A stretch of DNA of 64,000 nucleotides from positions 124,001 to 188,000 of the forward strand of contig JAJTCN010000001.1 in NCBI GenBank assembly GCA_021323335.1, given 5' to 3'. The notes under the pieces were generated by a model that was not told where the DNA came from, searched no databases, and saw only the letters and a program-made list of their open reading frames with translations. Position 1 is the stretch's first letter. Each line of letters opens with the position of its first letter. The DNA is from Ramlibacter sp. GTDB taxonomy: Bacteria; Pseudomonadota; Gammaproteobacteria; Burkholderiales; Burkholderiaceae_C. A program made the position numbers and the translations under genes. Of the stretch, positions 1 to 8,615 are shown piece by piece.

Positions 1-1
1 T

Positions 2-229
2 AGATCCCTGGAACATCACCTACAAAACAAGCGTCGACGGTCACAAGAGCTCATTGCCGCGCACCGGGCATCGGGGAACAGGCGCAGGTTAAGACTGGTG
101 GCGGCCGAGGAGGGACGGCTAAAAAAGGAAGCCCAGCGCATCGAGAGCCGCATCGCGGAGTTGCGTTTGAAGGAAACCTTTCGAGCCCAAGAGAGCATGG
201 TGTCCGTCGGGGTGATTCGCATCCGCTGA
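2..229 (+). CDS. C-terminal end of a charged coiled-coil protein (partial)
   Basis: The frame is open from the left window edge to a TGA at 227-229, giving about 75 residues of an incomplete protein. The stretch is rich in Arg, Glu, Lys, Leu and Ala with no helix breakers in its middle, for example AEEGRLKKEAQRIESRIAEL, which reads as a long amphipathic or coiled-coil helix. The stop lies 12 bases before the ATG of the next gene, whose Shine-Dalgarno GAGGAG overlaps this stop, so the two are almost certainly co-transcribed. The family cannot be named from the tail alone. Context makes it the upstream partner of the actin/Hsp70-like ATPase. Confidence 0.55.
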   Translation, partial: RSLEHHLQNKRRRSQELIAAHRASGNRRRLRLVAAEEGRLKKEAQRIESRIAELRLKETFRAQESMVSVGVIRIR

Positions 230-241
230 GGAGAAGTGCGC

Positions 242-2026
242 ATGGCCAAGTCGATCCGTGAGGCCATGCAGGCCGCCATCAGCAAGCAACCGCCGTGCGA
301 AGCTTTAACGGCACCATCGACTGCGACGGCCCGGCCGCCTACGCAGTCGGACAGTGTGGCGGTTGAGAAGCTTCTCACAGCTGCGAATCCGAAGGGAAGA
401 GGGGGACAGAATTTGATCCGTGTTACGTACGGACCCTCTTCGGGAGCCCGGCGGAAGAAGAAGAAGCACCATGAGAGCCCAGCGATCAACCTTTCACCTG
501 CGGGTGCAGTGACTGTTCGCGGAGAAGATCAGCGTTCTGTCGTCCAGGTTGCAACTCCTATAGCCAAACCGCCCCCGCATCCTAAGGCTCCTCGACGCAA
601 GCTTCAAATCTCCCCGCATGCCTCATTGGCACTGAGCACGGGTAATGCGTGCGACATCAGGCTTCTCACGAAATTTGAGGCACTCGGTCGCGCCGTGCAG
701 GTGGAAAGCAGCCGCCGGACCGATCAGCGCGAGGTCGTCCTAGGCCTTGACTTCGGGACGTCATGCACCAAAGGCGTCTTTGGCGATCCCTCGCTGGGTA
801 GGTCGTTCGCTGTTCCGTTTCGGGAGAGACCCGGGCTGGACGCGTTCTTGTTGCCTGCGGTTCTGTTCCAGACAGGGGACGCGTTTTCTCTAGACGCGGG
901 TACCCATGCGCATCGCGATCTGAAATTAGCGCTCTTGGCGCACCCAGAGGATCTCCGGTTGCAGGTTCGAGCTGTTGCGTACCTAGCGCTGGCGATTCGG
1001 CGGGCAAGAGGCTGGCTGCTCACGACACAGGCCGCCGTGTACAAAACAACTGAAATCTACTGGCGCTTTACCCTGGGACTGCCGGCGGCACAGCATCTTC
1101 GTGCTCCGTTCACTGATCTCTTTCGGGTGCTTGCGGAAGCTGCTTGGTCGGTGTCCACCAGCTCCGAAGAGGTGACAGCGATCTTCGTGGCCGCTAAGTT
1201 GGCAGGAGTATCGGCGCCCACGCCTGAGCACGACCTCGAGGTCACTGTAGTCCCTGAGATCGCGGCGCAGATCTACGGCTTTGTCGTCTCCTCCAGATTT
1301 GATAGACAGGCCCCCAACCTCTACTTGATGGCAGACGTTGGTGCGGGTACCGTTGATTCATCACTCTTCAGAGTAAAGCGAGCCGGGCGAGGGAAATGGG
1401 ACTTTGAGTTCTACACTTCTCTAGTAGAGCCGAACGGCGCGAGTAACCTTCATCGCCATCGCAGCAAATGGTGGGCAGAGGAACTTATTGCGTGTGAGGC
1501 TTCGGAGCCGCTGCGCGCGAAGCTGGAAGAAGCCCGTTTCCAGACGGATATCGGCCTTCGTGTTCCTGCCAGCTATGCCGACTACTTCACCGGCATACAG
1601 ATCGAACCTTTTGAGAGAAATCGGACGCCGGATGTCGAATTCTTTGACCGCGTCGTTGCGCAGGTGCAGGGCAAAACGTTTTGGCGGGCATGGAAGAACC
1701 AGCTGCTTCCCCAGAGCAGCCTAACAGGCATTCCCTTTTTCTTGTGCGGAGGGGGTGGTCGAATGGAGTTCTATCAAAAGCTGGAAGTGGAGCTGCGAAA
1801 CATGCCTGGCTGCTCCTGGCTAAAGGCCGAGCCGTGGAGGTTGGCCGTTCCTTCAGACCTCGAGGCTCTGGGACTGGATGAAGAGGATTACGACAGACTG
1901 TCCGTCGCCTATGGTCTTAGCCGTCTAGAGGTCGGCAGAGTCGTTCAGGCGATGCCGATGTCTAGGCTGGAGACGACGCAATTTCCGAGCTGGCGGGAGA
2001 ACTACGTCGACAAGGATCAGTGCTGA
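242..2026 (+). CDS. Actin/Hsp70-fold (ASKHA) ATPase with a long basic N-terminal extension
   Basis: 594 residues. The nucleotide-binding signatures of the sugar kinase/Hsp70/actin superfamily are present: phosphate-1 DFGTSCTKG (about 170-178), phosphate-2 DVGAGTVDSS (about 365-374) and an adenosine-type CGGGGR (about 502-507). The first 160 residues are low-complexity, rich in Pro, Ala, Ser and Lys, with an RRKKKKHH patch near 70. There is no Hsp70 substrate-binding domain, and about 90 residues follow the adenosine motif. ATG 242 sits 8 bases from GAGGAG; an in-frame GTG at 236 is too close to it. The neighbours are a coiled-coil protein upstream and a small helical protein downstream. GC is visibly lower than in the rest of the window, which suggests transfer. 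The ATPase fold is well supported; the role (filament, chaperone-like or defence) is unknown. Confidence 0.75.
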   Translation: MAKSIREAMQAAISKQPPCEALTAPSTATARPPTQSDSVAVEKLLTAANPKGRGGQNLIRVTYGPSSGARRKKKKHHESPAINLSPAGAVTVRGEDQRSVVQVATPIAKPPPHPKAPRRKLQISPHASLALSTGNACDIRLLTKFEALGRAVQVESSRRTDQREVVLGLDFGTSCTKGVFGDPSLGRSFAVPFRERPGLDAFLLPAVLFQTGDAFSLDAGTHAHRDLKLALLAHPEDLRLQVRAVAYLALAIRRARGWLLTTQAAVYKTTEIYWRFTLGLPAAQHLRAPFTDLFRVLAEAAWSVSTSSEEVTAIFVAAKLAGVSAPTPEHDLEVTVVPEIAAQIYGFVVSSRFDRQAPNLYLMADVGAGTVDSSLFRVKRAGRGKWDFEFYTSLVEPNGASNLHRHRSKWWAEELIACEASEPLRAKLEEARFQTDIGLRVPASYADYFTGIQIEPFERNRTPDVEFFDRVVAQVQGKTFWRAWKNQLLPQSSLTGIPFFLCGGGGRMEFYQKLEVELRNMPGCSWLKAEPWRLAVPSDLEALGLDEEDYDRLSVAYGLSRLEVGRVVQAMPMSRLETTQFPSWRENYVDKDQC

Positions 2027-2106
2027 CTTTCGACCCTGAGCGTCAGCGCTCAAGATTTAGCTGCCGTCATTGGGCTGTAGTTTTTGACTTTTGAGGAGGA
2101 GAAGCG

Positions 2107-2565
2107 ATGCGGAGACCTAGCTTAACGGGGTGGGCCTGGATCCTTTGGCGGGCTAAGGAGCCAATGTCTCTTCCCGTTGAGAGGCTGGTGCGGCCGCTGG
2201 CCGCCTTTTATCAGTACGTCAATGAGCAGCAGGAGCGTTTCCATCGATACAAGTCCTTTAAGCCCTTGATGGACTACATGGAGCGCGTACTTGCCAGCCT
2301 CGAGGAGGGGATTGGATGGCTGCAGCAACATGACGAGGATGAGCTTAGTTATAAGGAGCTGCAGGAATCCTTAACAGATGACACGGCTGAGGGACTTCAG
2401 GAAGCGCTGGACAGTTTTCCTCGGCTGGTCCGGCTGATACCCAAAGGCACACCCGAGGACATAGAGGGGTTGCTGAACGACGTGCAGAGCTTCGTCGAAG
2501 ACGTTTGCGAGGACATCTCCAAGCGTGGCTACGACCTCTACCACGTTTTAATTGGTGCCGCCTGA
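2107..2565 (+). CDS. Small acidic all-helical protein of unknown function
   Basis: 152 residues. The start ATG is preceded by a strong GAGGAGGAGA ribosome-binding site ending about 5 bases upstream. No family is recognised. The sequence is predicted by eye to be almost entirely alpha-helical and acidic (for example LQQHDEDELSYKELQESL), with no signal peptide or hydrophobic segment long enough to span a membrane. It follows the actin/Hsp70-like ATPase by 80 bases on the same strand and shares its lower GC, so it is most likely a dedicated partner of that ATPase. Confidence 0.6.
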   Translation: MRRPSLTGWAWILWRAKEPMSLPVERLVRPLAAFYQYVNEQQERFHRYKSFKPLMDYMERVLASLEEGIGWLQQHDEDELSYKELQESLTDDTAEGLQEALDSFPRLVRLIPKGTPEDIEGLLNDVQSFVEDVCEDISKRGYDLYHVLIGAA

Positions 2566-3249: not shown

Positions 3250-3690
3250 TCACGCGGCGGCGAGCGCTTCCAGGCGCTTCATGGCCTGGCGCTTTCCCAG
3301 CTTCCTGATGCCCGCAATGGCTTCAAGGTGCTTAGCACGCGGTTTGGATTTGCCGGCTTCCCACTTGTAGACGCTGAGGGCTGATGCGTCGAGCAGCATT
3401 CCCATTTCACGTGCACTGAGCCCCAACCGCTTACGGTGCTGTGCAAATCCGGCGGCGCGGAAGCGTAGGTTGGCGTCTTCCTGGTCGCCATCCGTTTGCG
3501 GCCTAACGGTGGCAACGACTTCGGTGACTTGCTTCTGCCCCCGCTCAAGGTCAGCAACCCTGCGTTTCAACGCCGTAATTTCACTTCGGTAACTGGCGAG
3601 CGCCTTCTTCAGCGCGCCGTTGTTGCTCTTTTGCTCTTTGCGGGCAAGGCGAGTGATTTCCTGCTTGAGTGCGGTAGCGATGTTCGGCAT
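3250..3690 (-). CDS. XRE-like helix-turn-helix protein with an N-terminal coiled coil
   Basis: 146 residues. Residues about 15-50 form a charged helix with heptad character (LKKALASYRSEITALKRRVA). The C-terminal half carries an XRE-type helix-turn-helix: GFAQHRKRLGLSAREMGMLL then SALSVYKWEAGKSKPRAKHL, where the second helix with YKWE and KP is typical of Cro/C1-type domains. A soluble DNA-binding regulator is likely. It is isolated, transcribed leftward toward the gene-poor stretch, and its target is unknown. Phage- or island-associated regulators often have this build, which fits the accessory character of 1-6400. Confidence 0.65.
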   Translation of the reverse strand: MPNIATALKQEITRLARKEQKSNNGALKKALASYRSEITALKRRVADLERGQKQVTEVVATVRPQTDGDQEDANLRFRAAGFAQHRKRLGLSAREMGMLLDASALSVYKWEAGKSKPRAKHLEAIAGIRKLGKRQAMKRLEALAAA

Positions 3691-4327: not shown

Positions 4328-5773
4328 CTAGGAAGGGACCAGGTCCGTTGGTGGGCGAATGCGCTTGATCCAGCCGGTGCCGTCCTCGTTCAGGTGCCAC
4401 GTTACGTTGCTGGTGTACTTGCCGAACTCGCGCTTGACGCGGCCCCGCGCGCGGTTGACGACGTCTGCCATCAGTTCCTTGAACCCGTCTTTGTCGACTG
4501 CGGTCGCGGTGGCGGACAGGCAGTGACGCGCGATCTGCTCGCGCAGGAGCGCGTACGTCCAATTCTCCGATTGCCTATCGAGCAGGTAGGCGGCCGCGTA
4601 GTCGTGCATCCGTGCCACGCACAGATTCTTGTTCGAACCGGCCCGGCTCCGGCTGAAGCCCTTTTCCTGAAGAGGTTGGGCGCACTGTTCCACGGCTCCA
4701 GTGCCCAAGTAGCTTGCGCCTAGCAGCCTCTGGTACATCTCGGTGTCCGGGATTCCATCGCCGATGCGCCACGAGAGGTCGATCACTGGAAACGCGACCG
4801 CGAAGGCCGCCAATTCGTCGAGGTACAGATTATCGTTCGGTGTCGCCCAGTTCATGAAGTGGACGACCATCTTGAGCGAGGTGTCCTTCAGGATTGCACC
4901 GAGCATCGCCTCGTCGTCGTTGCGCAGCAGCTGGAGGATCTCCCGCATGGACTGGGGCCGCTCCTCGGCTTGCAGCGCGAGGCAACGCTCCACCAGGTCG
5001 TGGATGCGTGTGGCGTTGCGGCCACCGCCCCGCTGGGCCAGTACCCGCGCGTCCGTGCGCATTAGGCGCAAGCGGGCGTCAGGTGGCGGTGCGCCCTCCA
5101 GCATCTCGTACATAGTCGCGCCCAAGGCGTAGATGTCGGTCCACGCGCCCTGGGGCCCAAAACGTGACTCCAGCTGCTCCGGTGGCGCGTAGCCCGGGGT
5201 GAAGATCACATCGGCGGCATCGCCGAAAGGCCTGACGGCGCCGAAGTCCAGTAGGACCGGGCTGCCGTCCTGCCGGATAAGCACGTTGTCTGGCTTAACG
5301 TCCCGGTGGATCAGCCCTGCCGCGTGCAGCTTGCCCAGTCCGTCGCAGAGCGGGCGCACGATGGCTTCGAGCTCCTGGTCGGTCACTGAGCCTCCCCGCT
5401 CGCGCAGGTAGGCGCGCAGATTGCGCCCCGTCTCGTATTCCATAACCAGATAGGCGGTGTGATTCGCCTCGAAGTAGCGCACCGCCCGCGCAATGTGAGG
5501 ATGGGAGAACCGGGCTAGCGCCTGTGCCTCCTTGAGGTAGGAGCCGCGCTGTAGCTCGAAAGGGCACTGATCGGCCATCTGCCGCACGGCCAGGCCACCG
5601 TCGGGCAATCGCATGACGAGGTGGTGGGGCGTGAATTCCTTGACTACGAATTTCTTCTTCAGGTAGCGGTCTTCGCACAAGTAGGCCGTCCCGAACCCGC
5701 CGGTGCCGATGTGCTGGTCCACGACATAGTCCGCCAGCAAGGTGCCGCAAGGCAAAGGTGAGACACGCTGCAT
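4328..5773 (-). CDS. Eukaryotic-like serine/threonine protein kinase
   Basis: 481 residues. The Hanks-type kinase domain fills about residues 14-290. It has the glycine loop GTGGFG (23-28), the ATP-binding Lys about 45 in VVKEF, the catalytic loop HRDVKPDN (156-163), DFG (176-178) and the activation-segment end APPEQ (196-200). All catalytic residues are intact, so it should be active. The remaining 190 residues form a C-terminal domain I do not recognise, with no predicted transmembrane helix and no PASTA repeats. It is a monocistronic leftward gene with no adjacent phosphatase or FHA protein. Such soluble kinases in Burkholderiales often act in signalling or accessory systems; the substrate is unknown. 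Confidence 0.85.
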   Translation of the reverse strand: MQRVSPLPCGTLLADYVVDQHIGTGGFGTAYLCEDRYLKKKFVVKEFTPHHLVMRLPDGGLAVRQMADQCPFELQRGSYLKEAQALARFSHPHIARAVRYFEANHTAYLVMEYETGRNLRAYLRERGGSVTDQELEAIVRPLCDGLGKLHAAGLIHRDVKPDNVLIRQDGSPVLLDFGAVRPFGDAADVIFTPGYAPPEQLESRFGPQGAWTDIYALGATMYEMLEGAPPPDARLRLMRTDARVLAQRGGGRNATRIHDLVERCLALQAEERPQSMREILQLLRNDDEAMLGAILKDTSLKMVVHFMNWATPNDNLYLDELAAFAVAFPVIDLSWRIGDGIPDTEMYQRLLGASYLGTGAVEQCAQPLQEKGFSRSRAGSNKNLCVARMHDYAAAYLLDRQSENWTYALLREQIARHCLSATATAVDKDGFKELMADVVNRARGRVKREFGKYTSNVTWHLNEDGTGWIKRIRPPTDLVPS

Positions 5774-6412: not shown

Positions 6413-7912
6413 ATGGCCATCTTCACGACCGACGCACTCGACACTCTCCTTTTCATCCGCGACGGTTACGCCGACGCGCGCTGGAACTTCGCCGACGCCG
6501 TGGGCACGCATGTCGACAGTCCCGGTGGGCTGGGCAACGGTGTTTCGCTGACCTACAGTTTTCTCGAGTCACTGCCCGCGTACGCCAGCTACGAACTCAA
6601 TTTCCAGCCGATGGATGCGGCGATGCAGGCCGCCGCCGAAAGCGTGCTCGCGCAAGTGGCGGAGTTGGTGGACATCGACTTCACGCGCGTCGCCGACCAG
6701 GAGGGACAGATCAGGTTCGGGGCGGCCGATCAGTCCGGCTCCAGCGCCTGGGCCTACCCGCCGGCGTTCTTCACCACGGTCGACGACAGCGGCATCATCA
6801 CGGACGCCACCCGGGTCCCCATCACCGGCAGCGTCTGGTTCAACAACATCGTCGGGTGGAGCGCAGATCAGTTCGAGCCGGGGGCCTTCGGCTACTCCCT
6901 GATGCTGCACGAGGTGGGTCACGCGCTGGGCCTGAAGCATCCCTTCACTTCCAGCCGGGAGGATGGCTACATCCTGGACTGGTCGATCGACCATGAGGGC
7001 TACACGGTGATGTCGTACACCCACGCGCCACGCACCGCGGTGCTGAAGGCCGTCGGCGGCGACGGCGGCTGGGCCCTGGAGTACCTCTCGCCGGACACCA
7101 TGATGCTGCTGGACATCCAGGCGCTGCAGCACCTGTACGGCGCGAACACGGACACGCGGGCCGGCGACACGGTGTACGCGTGGGACACCAACCAGGAGAT
7201 GCTGGAGACCCTCTGGGACGGCGGCGGCACGGACACGCTGGATTGCAGCAACCAGGTGTTCACCTGCCGGATCGACCTGCGTGACGGCCAGTTCAGCTCC
7301 ATCGGCTGGCGACGCACGGATGCGGAACTCAAGGAAGGCTTCGGCCTCCCGGCTTCCTTCAGCTTTGACGAACTGCATCCCTCCGTCCTGCCCACGCTGT
7401 ACGACGGCCGGAACAACCTGGCGATCGCCGTGGATGCCGTCATCGAGAACGCCAGCGGCGGTTCCGGCAACGACGTCATCATCGGCAACGACGTGGCCAA
7501 TCGCCTTCTGGGCGGCTCCGGCCAGGACAGGTTGTCGGGCGGCCGCAGCCACGACATGCTGGACGGCGGCCGCGGGCTGGACCGCATGGCGGGCGGAGGC
7601 GGACGCGACCTGTTCGACTTCAACCGCCTCGCCGACACGGGCAAGATGCTGGCGACGGCGGACGTGATCACCGCCTTCATCTCCGGCGTGGACCGCATCG
7701 ACCTGTCCACCATCGACGCGCGCGCCGCGCGCGTCGGCAACCAGGCCTTCTCTTTCATCGGCGACGCTGCCTTCAGCAGCAGGAATGCCACCGGGCAGGT
7801 GCGTTTCGAAGGCGGCGTGCTGTACGCGAGCACGGACGCCGACACGGCCGCGGAACTGGTGATCCGCTTGCCGGGCGTGAGCGCGCTGACCGCGGCCGAT
7901 CTGTTGCTTTAA
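6413..7912 (+). CDS. Serralysin-type zinc metalloprotease with RTX repeats
   Basis: 499 residues. The zinc-binding motif HEVGHALGLKH (166-176, form HExxHxxGxxH) and the Met-turn VMSY (about 199-202) place it in peptidase family M10B. A glycine/aspartate-rich stretch at about 348-400 (SGGSGNDVIIGNDVAN, LLGGSGQDRLSGG) reads as calcium-binding RTX nonapeptides, followed by a C-terminal beta-rich secretion region. There is no Sec signal peptide, consistent with type I secretion in this family. No ABC transporter, membrane-fusion or inhibitor gene lies nearby, so the exporter must be elsewhere. The predicted role is an extracellular protease. The start is the longest available and has no clear Shine-Dalgarno. 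Confidence 0.88.
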   Translation: MAIFTTDALDTLLFIRDGYADARWNFADAVGTHVDSPGGLGNGVSLTYSFLESLPAYASYELNFQPMDAAMQAAAESVLAQVAELVDIDFTRVADQEGQIRFGAADQSGSSAWAYPPAFFTTVDDSGIITDATRVPITGSVWFNNIVGWSADQFEPGAFGYSLMLHEVGHALGLKHPFTSSREDGYILDWSIDHEGYTVMSYTHAPRTAVLKAVGGDGGWALEYLSPDTMMLLDIQALQHLYGANTDTRAGDTVYAWDTNQEMLETLWDGGGTDTLDCSNQVFTCRIDLRDGQFSSIGWRRTDAELKEGFGLPASFSFDELHPSVLPTLYDGRNNLAIAVDAVIENASGGSGNDVIIGNDVANRLLGGSGQDRLSGGRSHDMLDGGRGLDRMAGGGGRDLFDFNRLADTGKMLATADVITAFISGVDRIDLSTIDARAARVGNQAFSFIGDAAFSSRNATGQVRFEGGVLYASTDADTAAELVIRLPGVSALTAADLLL

Positions 7913-7916
7913 GACG

Positions 7917-8615
7917 CTACACGAGGGTGCCCAGAGCCGCCGCCCCTCGGCCTGCAAACCGCAGCTCCACCCCACACGGCCCCTGATCCCTGCGCCGCTG
8001 TCCATCCCGCACCAGCCGGATCCGCGCGCCCTCCAGCAACACTTCGCCCCCGCTCACCGCGTCCTGCCCGAGGAACGCCCGATAGCGTGCAAGTGAAGCT
8101 TCGACATCCGCCACGGCCACCGTCACGCCTGCGATCCCCGTCGCGCCATTCGGATGCCGCCGCACCTCTCCCTCCGGCACGCGCAGGCCCCGCGGCGTGA
8201 GGTCGGCGCACAGGAACGGCAGGTCATGCTGCGCCTGGCGCGCCGTTTGCCAGTCCACGCGCTGGCCGTCCGGTCGCACCCGCCCGCCGGGCAACGGCCC
8301 GGTGATGTCCGACAGCCCGCGCGCGCGCGCCTGGTCCAGGACCGCCTGCAGATCCTGCGGCAGCAGTGCGAAGTCCACCAGGCCGTCGCCATGCGCATCG
8401 AGTTCGCGCCACCAGCGCTCGTCCGGCGAGGGCTTGCTGTAGGTGATCAGCTCCAGGTAAGCGCCGTCGTCGAACACCACCAGCGCATTGCTGGTATTGC
8501 GTCCGGGATGGCGCCCGCCGGGGGCCACCGTGAAGCCGGCTTCCGTGTAGCGCGCGACGGTGCGATCGAGGTCGGCGACCGCGATGACGACGTGGTCCAG
8601 CCGCAGCAGGTTCAC
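7917..8615 (-). CDS. VOC/glyoxalase-like domain protein
   Basis: 232 residues from a GTG start whose codon overlaps the TGA of the upstream Bug gene (GTGA), indicating translational coupling. It opens with LLRLDHVVIAVADLDRTVAR, the typical first strand and helix of a vicinal-oxygen-chelate module. A second module begins near GIAGVTVAVADVEASLARY in the last third. The fold resembles Glyoxalase_3-like proteins, a mixed group of lyases, dioxygenases and isomerases using a metal. It ends the operon TPP enzyme - Bug protein - VOC protein, so it probably acts on the same unidentified substrate. It converges with the metalloprotease gene with only 4 bases between stops. Confidence 0.75.
   Translation of the reverse strand: MNLLRLDHVVIAVADLDRTVARYTEAGFTVAPGGRHPGRNTSNALVVFDDGAYLELITYSKPSPDERWWRELDAHGDGLVDFALLPQDLQAVLDQARARGLSDITGPLPGGRVRPDGQRVDWQTARQAQHDLPFLCADLTPRGLRVPEGEVRRHPNGATGIAGVTVAVADVEASLARYRAFLGQDAVSGGEVLLEGARIRLVRDGQRRRDQGPCGVELRFAGRGAAALGTLV

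What the first reader, a model, noticed from the sequence alone, without database searches (positions are those of the whole stretch)
2..2565. Candidate undescribed module: coiled-coil protein, actin/Hsp70-fold ATPase with a basic tail, and a small acidic helical partner
Three consecutive genes share strand, spacing and visibly lower GC than the rest of the window. The ATPase keeps three nucleotide-binding signatures but has a 160-residue Lys/Pro-rich N-terminal extension and no Hsp70 substrate-binding domain. The outer genes have no recognised family. The coiled-coil + ASKHA ATPase + acidic helical layout resembles filament or chaperone-like conflict systems but matches none I know. The left gene is cut by the window, so more members may lie upstream.
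Basis: partly seen in the sequence, partly recalled or inferred. Interest (0 to 1): 0.72.

Follow-up and report, generated by a model that had tools for sequence, protein, structure and literature searches.

The report
Bacterial SNF2–actin/Hsp70-fold ATPase gene pair
A bacterial DNA-motor gene of the SNF2 family travels as a fixed pair with a gene for an actin/Hsp70-shaped ATPase, a pairing otherwise familiar from the machines that remodel chromatin in our own cells; here it probably serves defence against phages and plasmids.

Summary
The ATPase is real and the fold call holds: comparison with DnaK gives 96.8% probability over the nucleotide-binding domain only, and key positions are invariant in 12 of 12 homologues. 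The three-gene module is not as described. The "coiled-coil protein" is the last 75 residues of a 1036-aa SNF2-family helicase cut by the window edge. The 152-aa acidic ORF has no convincing homologue.

The conserved unit is SNF2 helicase + ASKHA ATPase: adjacent in all 14 loci found (about 12 independent). In a 398-genome survey the 5 genomes with the high-scoring SNF2 are the 5 with the ATPase, one spurious ATPase hit set aside; the two proteins' distances correlate at r = 0.905. Of 12 weaker SNF2 hits, 9 have a Sacsin/Hsp90-like ATPase in that slot and 3 belong to other loci. Defence-type genes lie near 9 of 14 pairs. Likeliest: an anti-invader DNA translocase gated by an Arp-like or chaperone-fold switch. 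Function is inferred; both structure predictions were poor. My literature searches found no description of the pair.

The parts
1..229 (+). C-terminal end (75 residues, helical/coiled-coil) of the SNF2-family helicase gene. The whole 1036-aa gene lies mostly left of the window, at G000:C102:121119-124229 (L002:13119-16229).
   Evidence: ORF map of L002; locates the 75 residues at 962-1036 of 1036; Pfam SNF2-rel_dom 9.2e-22 and Helicase_C 3.7e-20; PADLOC DrmD PDLC02623 899 bits.
236..2026 (+). ASKHA (actin/Hsp70-fold) ATPase. The GTG at 236 gives 596 aa; the ATG at 242, with GAGGAG just upstream, is the likelier start.
   Evidence: hhalign to DnaK NBD 96.8%, E 2.5e-10, three controls at most 0.4%; key positions invariant in 12 of 12; adjacent to a SNF2 gene in 14 of 14 loci.
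242..739 (+). Variable basic, Pro-rich N-terminal extension (up to residue 168, before LGLDFGTS), including a KKKKHH stretch; presumed disordered (inference).
   Evidence: 28 K+R, 12 D+E, 16 P; length 7-295 aa across 12 homologues, so not a defining feature.
2107..2565 (+). 152-aa acidic ORF, probably a real gene (GAGGAGGAG upstream, coding-like codon usage) but an orphan; probably not part of the conserved system.
   Evidence: codon statistics; no convincing homologue.

Best explanation
The conserved unit is a two-gene module: a SNF2-family DNA translocase and an ASKHA ATPase that works as its dedicated, nucleotide-controlled regulatory subunit. I propose that the ATPase docks on the last, coiled-coil part of the translocase, which the ASKHA-type helicases share and the sister type matches weakly or not at all. 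ATP binding and hydrolysis in the ASKHA cleft would then switch the translocase between resting and DNA-engaged states, much as actin/Arp subunits gate SNF2 remodellers in eukaryotes. When the pair recognises invading DNA it would translocate along it, stall or strip it, and hand it to a nuclease: either a neighbour that varies between loci (here the RecD-like helicase with a nuclease-like C-terminal end) or a host one. Shown: the pairing, its tight gene spacing and co-variation, the ASKHA fold class, conservation of key positions, defence-type neighbours at most loci. Inferred: physical interaction, docking site, gating, DNA targeting, and anti-phage or anti-plasmid function.
For: Pairing: 14 of 14 loci have both genes adjacent (window, L003-L008, L014-L017, L029, L033, L045). 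In 13 of 14 the SNF2 gene comes first with -8 to +14 bases between the genes; in L005 the order is reversed. Surveys: in 398 genomes SNF2 model >= 735 bits in 5 and ATPase in the same 5, G135 rejected; in 337 genomes 2 and the same 2; in plasmids 6 of 6 full-length SNF2 hits have the ATPase next door. Co-variation r = 0.905, 0 of 2000 permutations as high. ASKHA-type SNF2 proteins fall on one side of a branch, support 86/98. Fold; key positions. The profile of the last 87 helicase residues scores 48.6 and 67.1 bits in the two held-out ASKHA-type helicases and at most 18.8 in nine sister-type ones. Defence-type neighbours at 9 of 14 loci: PDC-S68 (window, L014), DpdF/GajB-like and PLD-SNF2 (L014), MkoC- and ZacB-like (L016), MkoA-like (L015), MkoB-like (L008, about 4 kb away), Hachiman HamA with restriction and TM0106 nuclease genes (L006), related AAA/restriction genes (L017), LmuB-like and Cap4 nuclease (L004), type I-D CRISPR (L005).
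Against: No experiment. Both AlphaFold2 models were poor (mean pLDDT 43.4 and 38.6), so neither fold nor interface is confirmed by structure. The N-terminal extension is not conserved, so a DNA-sensing tail like that of Arp8 cannot be general. The nuclease partner differs between loci and no dedicated one is annotated next to the pair in L005 and L008, so an effector is not fixed. No PADLOC match was found among the few neighbours scanned in L003, L007 and L045, and only weak ones in L029 (at most 46 bits; L033 is its near copy). The distance correlation shows shared history, not binding. Tree support (86/98) is below the starred level and L032 is on a long branch. The coiled-coil profile was trained on 10 ASKHA-type rows, so its specificity is partly built in, and the region before it (residues 700-950) is weakly shared with the sister type (9.8-31.8 bits). 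A chaperone reading fits almost as well.
Confidence: 0.5

Rival explanations
1. Chaperone reading: the ASKHA ATPase acts on proteins, remodelling phage protein-DNA complexes or the SNF2 motor itself, as a cut-down Hsp70 that has swapped places with an Hsp90-like protein in the sister system.
For: In 9 of the 12 weaker SNF2 hits examined the same slot holds a Sacsin-domain (Hsp90-like) protein, Pfam SACS 53-79 bits against a cut-off of 32.8. The nearest fold is the Hsp70 NBD. Two members (L015, L016) end in CxxCxGxG-like cysteine motifs that recall the DnaJ zinc finger (recalled).
Against: No substrate-binding domain: the DnaK match stops at the NBD. No DnaJ or GrpE partner gene was noticed next to the pairs, though none was searched for.
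Confidence: 0.22
2. Housekeeping or transcription reading: a RapA-like RNA polymerase recycling factor with an ATPase helper, or a plasmid-maintenance function, not defence.
For: The published parallel between the SNF2 helicase BrxHII and RapA (PMC12839542, passages) makes a RapA-like layout plausible here too (inference). Several copies lie on plasmids, in L008 and L029 near ParA-type genes.
Against: Very patchy distribution: 5 of 398 and 2 of 337 genomes. No RapA model among Pfam hits at E <= 0.01. Defence-type neighbours at 9 of 14 loci.
Confidence: 0.12
3. Filament reading: the ASKHA protein polymerises like ParM or MreB and positions or segregates DNA, with the SNF2 protein as its DNA adaptor.
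For: An actin-like ATPase is among the non-significant PDB profile hits (5jyg, E 2.3).
Against: No ParM/StbA, MreB or SrfB model was reported at E <= 1. The better match is to Hsp70.
Confidence: 0.08
4. The first reader's three-gene module (coiled-coil + ATPase + acidic helical protein).
For: The three ORFs are adjacent and share composition.
Against: The first is a helicase fragment; the third has no convincing homologue.
Confidence: 0.03

Closest known systems
DISARM helicase DrmD (PADLOC PDLC02623)
   Same: The SNF2 component matches this PADLOC model end to end (positions 4-1035 of 1040) at 899 bits.
   Different: The DISARM core was not seen: no DUF1998/MZB match (the DrmB mark, recalled) in 5 of 6 genomes holding the pair; the one match (G214) lies about 14 kb away in a 2140-aa frame. 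The model name is therefore probably too broad for this clade.
SNF2 + Sacsin/Hsp90-like pairs (sister type seen here)
   Same: Homologous SNF2 core (286-440 bits), partner gene directly after the helicase.
   Different: The partner is a Sacsin-domain protein of about 1030-1113 aa, similar to PADLOC TmtA in the two scanned, instead of an ASKHA ATPase; the end of the helicase differs.
Actin/Arp subunits of SWI/SNF and INO80 chromatin remodellers
   Same: An SNF2-family motor with an ASKHA-fold partner that controls motor and DNA binding (abstracts of PMC5969521 and PMC6098158).
   Different: Eukaryotic; Arps bind an N-terminal HSA domain; the bacterial protein resembles the Hsp70 NBD more than actin and keeps catalytic positions, whereas Arp7 does not hydrolyse ATP. 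Likely an analogy, not descent.
CoCoNuT CnuD / Hsp70-fused McrB systems
   Same: Hsp70-like ATPase in a predicted defence system (PMC11090510, passages).
   Different: CnuD has NBD and SBD, a degenerate Walker A-like motif and McrB/McrC partners; here NBD only, motifs intact, SNF2 partner.
GTPase-centred conflict systems with an Hsp70 lacking the peptide-binding domain (GAP1-N2)
   Same: A stand-alone Hsp70 NBD in a conflict locus (PMC7159879, passages).
   Different: Its partners are GTPases, Hsp70, GrpE and FNIII proteins, not an SNF2 helicase.
PADLOC candidates PDC-S68 and PDC-M61B
   Same: The upstream RecD-like helicase is PDC-S68 (1390 bits); the ATPase touches PDC-M61B over 27 residues (E 1.4e-4) and L015's over 42 (E 2.9e-6).
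   Different: PDC-S68 is by its name a single-gene candidate (meaning of the S recalled); the PDC-M61B matches cover one motif only, and I could not find out what PDC-M61 is.

Membership tests
ASKHA superfamily / Hsp70-type nucleotide-binding domain | Phosphate-1, phosphate-2 and adenosine motifs in order, NBD-length match | tested here: met
   hhalign of 12 homologues to 19 DnaK/HscA-type proteins 96.8%, E 2.5e-10, motifs in register; reversed-DnaK, Sacsin and SNF2 controls 0.4%, 0.1%, 0.2%. D172, K230, E341, D367, T372 and GGG invariant in 12 of 12. Structure model too poor to add to this.
Hsp70 chaperone (DnaK) | C-terminal substrate-binding domain | tested here: not met
   Match covers columns 27-373 of the 683-column DnaK profile; no Pfam HSP70 hit reported at E <= 1.
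SNF2 family helicase/translocase | SNF2_N and Helicase_C with Walker A (DEVGLGKT), DEAH and motif VI | tested here: met
   Pfam; motifs in the alignment (motif names recalled).
DISARM | Core DrmB (DUF1998) with DrmA and DrmC (core genes recalled) | tested here: not met
   DUF1998/MZB absent in 5 of 6 genomes holding the pair, distant in the sixth; the own genome is 89.7% complete; DrmA and DrmC were not searched on their own.
BREX / BREX-related systems | PglX-type methylase and PglZ beside the helicase | tested here: inconclusive
   None named among the annotated neighbours of L005, L006, L008, L029, L033; three remote SNF2 hits (H15-H17) sit with DUF499/DUF1156 genes and have no ASKHA ATPase. 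No dedicated search.
RapA | RapA C-terminal and Tudor domains | tested here: not met
   No RapA model among Pfam hits at E <= 0.01; NCBIfam not scanned for this protein; RNA polymerase binding untested.
SrfB / ParM / MreB | Match to the family model | tested here: not met
   None reported at E <= 1 in Pfam or NCBIfam.
CoCoNuT / CnuD | McrB-type GTPase partner and NBD+SBD Hsp70 | tested here: not met
   SBD absent; McrB itself was not searched.
Anti-phage defence system | Demonstrated protection | not testable with these tools
   Only neighbourhood evidence.

The most novel reading that the evidence does not exclude
Bacteria independently invented, or share an ancient form of, the SNF2 motor plus actin/Hsp70-fold regulatory subunit architecture of eukaryotic chromatin remodellers, and use it as an immune machine on foreign DNA; within one SNF2 helicase family the regulatory slot is filled alternatively by an Hsp70/actin-fold or an Hsp90-fold (Sacsin) ATPase.
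Probability: 0.3. Interest if true: 0.85.

Novelty: new variant of a known kind. Interest (0 to 1): 0.62.

Why it matters
Helicase-based immune systems are many, but how their motors are held in check is mostly unknown. A fixed SNF2-ASKHA pair, with an Hsp90-type ATPase in the same slot in sister loci, would make a general rule testable: chaperone-fold ATPases as interchangeable regulators of DNA motors. If the partner gates the motor as Arps do, a small two-gene bacterial system would give a tractable model for a question that is hard to study in large eukaryotic remodellers. It would also correct a database label, since this SNF2 clade is filed as DISARM DrmD.

Tried and rejected
Tried without gain: AlphaFold2 of the ASKHA core and of the SNF2 protein with three-row alignments gave low confidence. 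Foldseek on the ASKHA model put GRP78 and DnaK first (E 1.4e-3, probability 0.96; no match reached 1e-3), suggestive only because the model is poor. One scan of viral contigs and one of phages found no homologue. PADLOC PDC-M61B was found in none of 200 genomes or the controls, so its nature stays unknown. Of 16 PDB profile hits at E <= 10, 13 are BiP, a sugar kinase or an actin-like ATPase and 3 are unrelated; none is significant (best E 0.08). NCBIfam gave a YaiO outer-membrane domain match to the ATPase at E 0.0018, 18.3 bits, below its cut-off of 32; I take it as chance. The first DnaK comparison was spoiled because my script took antisense ORFs for some rows; it was redone and one search is not used.

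Rows dropped or weighed less: the ATPase hit in G135 (E 4.2e-5; 9.9 bits with the later profile; no SNF2 match in its locus) was rejected as spurious. L033 is a near copy of L029, and L014 and L007 are near copies, so 14 loci are about 12 independent ones. The tree used 12 ASKHA-type rows (L033 and L045 left out), the distance test 12 (L007 and L033 left out). Three remote SNF2 plasmid hits (H15-H17) belong to other loci. Considered and rejected: SrfB, ParM, RapA, DISARM, CoCoNuT (see membership test).

Papers: PMC11090510, PMC12839542, PMC12458937, PMC9142583, PMC3710099, PMC8195603, PMC7159879 and PMC10853773 seen as passages found by term; PMC6098158 and PMC5969521 as abstract and section list; the rest only as listings. 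The statement that the pair is not described rests on searches, with 23 (DISARM) and 96 (Arps) for background, in an open-licence library that lacks most subscription papers and bioRxiv's own holdings.
Full report
Observation. The window is G000:C102:124001-188000 of a 165-contig assembly, 89.7% complete. The three ORFs exist, share a strand and have lower GC than most of the window. Fetching the sequence to the left (L002) shows that the left ORF is the end of a 1036-aa protein with SNF2 and Helicase_C domains, and that a 1289-aa RecD-like helicase precedes it on the same strand (L002:9187-13056). The end of the RecD-like protein carries SKSE, PDF and EHxG motifs in both copies, which I read, from recall, as a PD-(D/E)XK-type nuclease. 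PADLOC names the two helicases DrmD (899 bits) and PDC-S68 (1390 bits).

The ATPase. Pfam and NCBIfam give only matches below their cut-offs. A profile of 12 homologues aligned to 19 DnaK/HscA-type proteins gives 96.8% probability, E 2.5e-10 for that single comparison, with the three nucleotide motifs in register and the match ending with the NBD; three controls stay at or below 0.4%. PDB profile hits are not significant; 13 of 16 are BiP, a sugar kinase or an actin-like ATPase. Counting from the GTG at 236, D172, K179, K230, E341, D367, G369, T372 and the GGG motif are invariant in 12 of 12; T175 is Ser in one and D374 is Glu in one. By alignment E341 falls on the Glu of DnaK's INEPTAAA stretch, the catalytic residue E171 as I recall it, so hydrolysis is likely; this is inference. 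AlphaFold2 gave only mean pLDDT 43.4, so the fold rests on the profile evidence.

The conserved unit. Homologues came from tblastn of plasmids (4), a scan of GTDB contigs (2), a 398-genome survey (4 besides the own and one rejected), a 337-genome survey (1 new) and, through the helicase, two Sphingobium plasmids whose ATPase only the profile finds (E 1e-75). With the window that is 14 loci, and 14 of 14 have the SNF2 gene adjacent. Near copies reduce this to about 12 independent loci. SNF2 comes first with -8 to +14 bases between genes in 13 (starts as my ORF caller set them); the order is reversed in L005. Identity to the window across 11 other loci is 18-42% for the ATPase and 34-67% for SNF2, so the link is old. 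The two distance matrices correlate at r = 0.905, against a maximum of 0.567 in 2000 permutations; this shows shared history, not binding.

Reverse test. Asking for the helicase first: of 398 genomes 8 matched at E <= 1e-60; the 5 at 735 bits or more are the genomes with the ATPase (G135 rejected), and the 3 at 372-405 bits are not. Of 337 genomes 4 matched: 2 at 1241 bits or more, both with the ATPase, and 2 below 500 bits without. The two samples overlap partly (G265 is in both). Of 13 plasmid records, 6 full-length hits all have the ATPase; the 7 partial ones do not.

The sister type. All 5 weaker genome loci and 4 of the 7 partial plasmid hits, so 9 of 12, have a Sacsin-domain (Hsp90-like) protein directly after the helicase (Pfam SACS 53-79 bits, cut-off 32.8; blast links). 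In L036 that gene is in pieces. The remaining three plasmid hits sit with DUF499/DUF1156 genes. A tree of 22 SNF2 proteins puts 12 ASKHA-type rows on one side of a branch against 6 Sacsin-type rows (86/98, below the starred level; one long row, L032).

Context. Defence-type genes lie near 9 of 14 pairs: PDC-S68 (window, L014); DpdF/GajB-like and PLD-SNF2 genes (L014); MkoC- and ZacB-like genes (L016); an MkoA-like gene (L015); an MkoB-like gene about 4 kb off (L008); Hachiman HamA, restriction and TM0106 nuclease genes (L006); related AAA/restriction genes (L017); Cap4-nuclease and LmuB-like genes and a UvrD helicase (L004); type I-D CRISPR genes (L005). L029 has only weak matches (at most 46 bits), and L033 is its near copy. 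The few neighbours scanned in L003, L007 and L045 gave none. In L007 the pair stands between what I read as a recombinase and an integrase gene (the record is not annotated), which suggests that it moves as a two-gene unit. The RecD-like helicase is therefore an optional partner, seen in 2 of 14 loci.

The small ORF. It probably is a gene (ribosome-binding sequence, codon statistics), but no search found a convincing relative.

How it may work. Eukaryotic SNF2 motors of the SWI/SNF and INO80 families bind actin-fold subunits: Arp7/9 binding changes how Sth1 holds DNA (PMC5969521 abstract), and Arp8/Arp4 sense DNA and couple ATP hydrolysis to movement (PMC6098158 abstract). The bacterial pair has the same two ingredients. 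I think the ASKHA protein is the nucleotide-controlled gate of a DNA translocase aimed at invading DNA. The swap with an Hsp90-fold protein in sister loci suggests that what matters is an ATP-driven clamp, not filament formation. A chaperone reading remains a strong rival.

Novelty. Ten library searches (two of them for background) and passages of eight papers gave no description of an SNF2-ASKHA or SNF2-Sacsin pair; the library is open-licence only. The components are partly known to PADLOC, so I grade this as a new variant of a known kind (helicase-centred defence modules), with a bolder reading left open.

Noticed in passing
L030, L031, L032, L034, L035, L036, L043, L044, L046: A sister kind of two-gene unit: DrmD-like SNF2 helicase followed at once by a Sacsin/Hsp90-like protein, in 9 of 12 weaker SNF2 hits, including an archaeal plasmid (L032) and a chromosome where it sits among what look like housekeeping genes (L034, read by eye).
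   Followed up: partly
L015:9003-10397 and L016:8602-10038: Two ASKHA homologues end in cysteine motifs of CxxCxGxG type, like the DnaJ zinc finger (recalled).
   Followed up: no
L004:5289-6329: A transposase gene (read by eye) interrupts the SNF2 helicase of the pair in Pseudomonas sp. 2FG.
   Followed up: no
L007 and L014: Nearly identical SNF2-ASKHA pairs on a Shinella replicon and in another genome, with recombinase- and integrase-like genes around the pair in L007: probably recent transfer of the two-gene unit.
   Followed up: partly
L005:1-14583: Leptolyngbya plasmid carries type I-D cas genes and repeat-rich ORFs upstream of the pair, with the gene order ATPase-SNF2 reversed.
   Followed up: no
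window 4328-5773 (- strand): Serine/threonine kinase with matches to PADLOC mad6 (174 bits) and PD-T4-6 models, close to the pair on the opposite strand.
   Followed up: partly
window 3250-3690 (- strand): 146-aa protein with a helix-turn-helix domain, between the pair and the kinase; possible regulator.
   Followed up: no
L002:1-7569 and 7576-8493: Very large ORF (at least 2522 aa) and a 305-aa ORF upstream of the RecD-like helicase, outside the window; the 305-aa one has no Pfam match at E <= 0.01.
   Followed up: no
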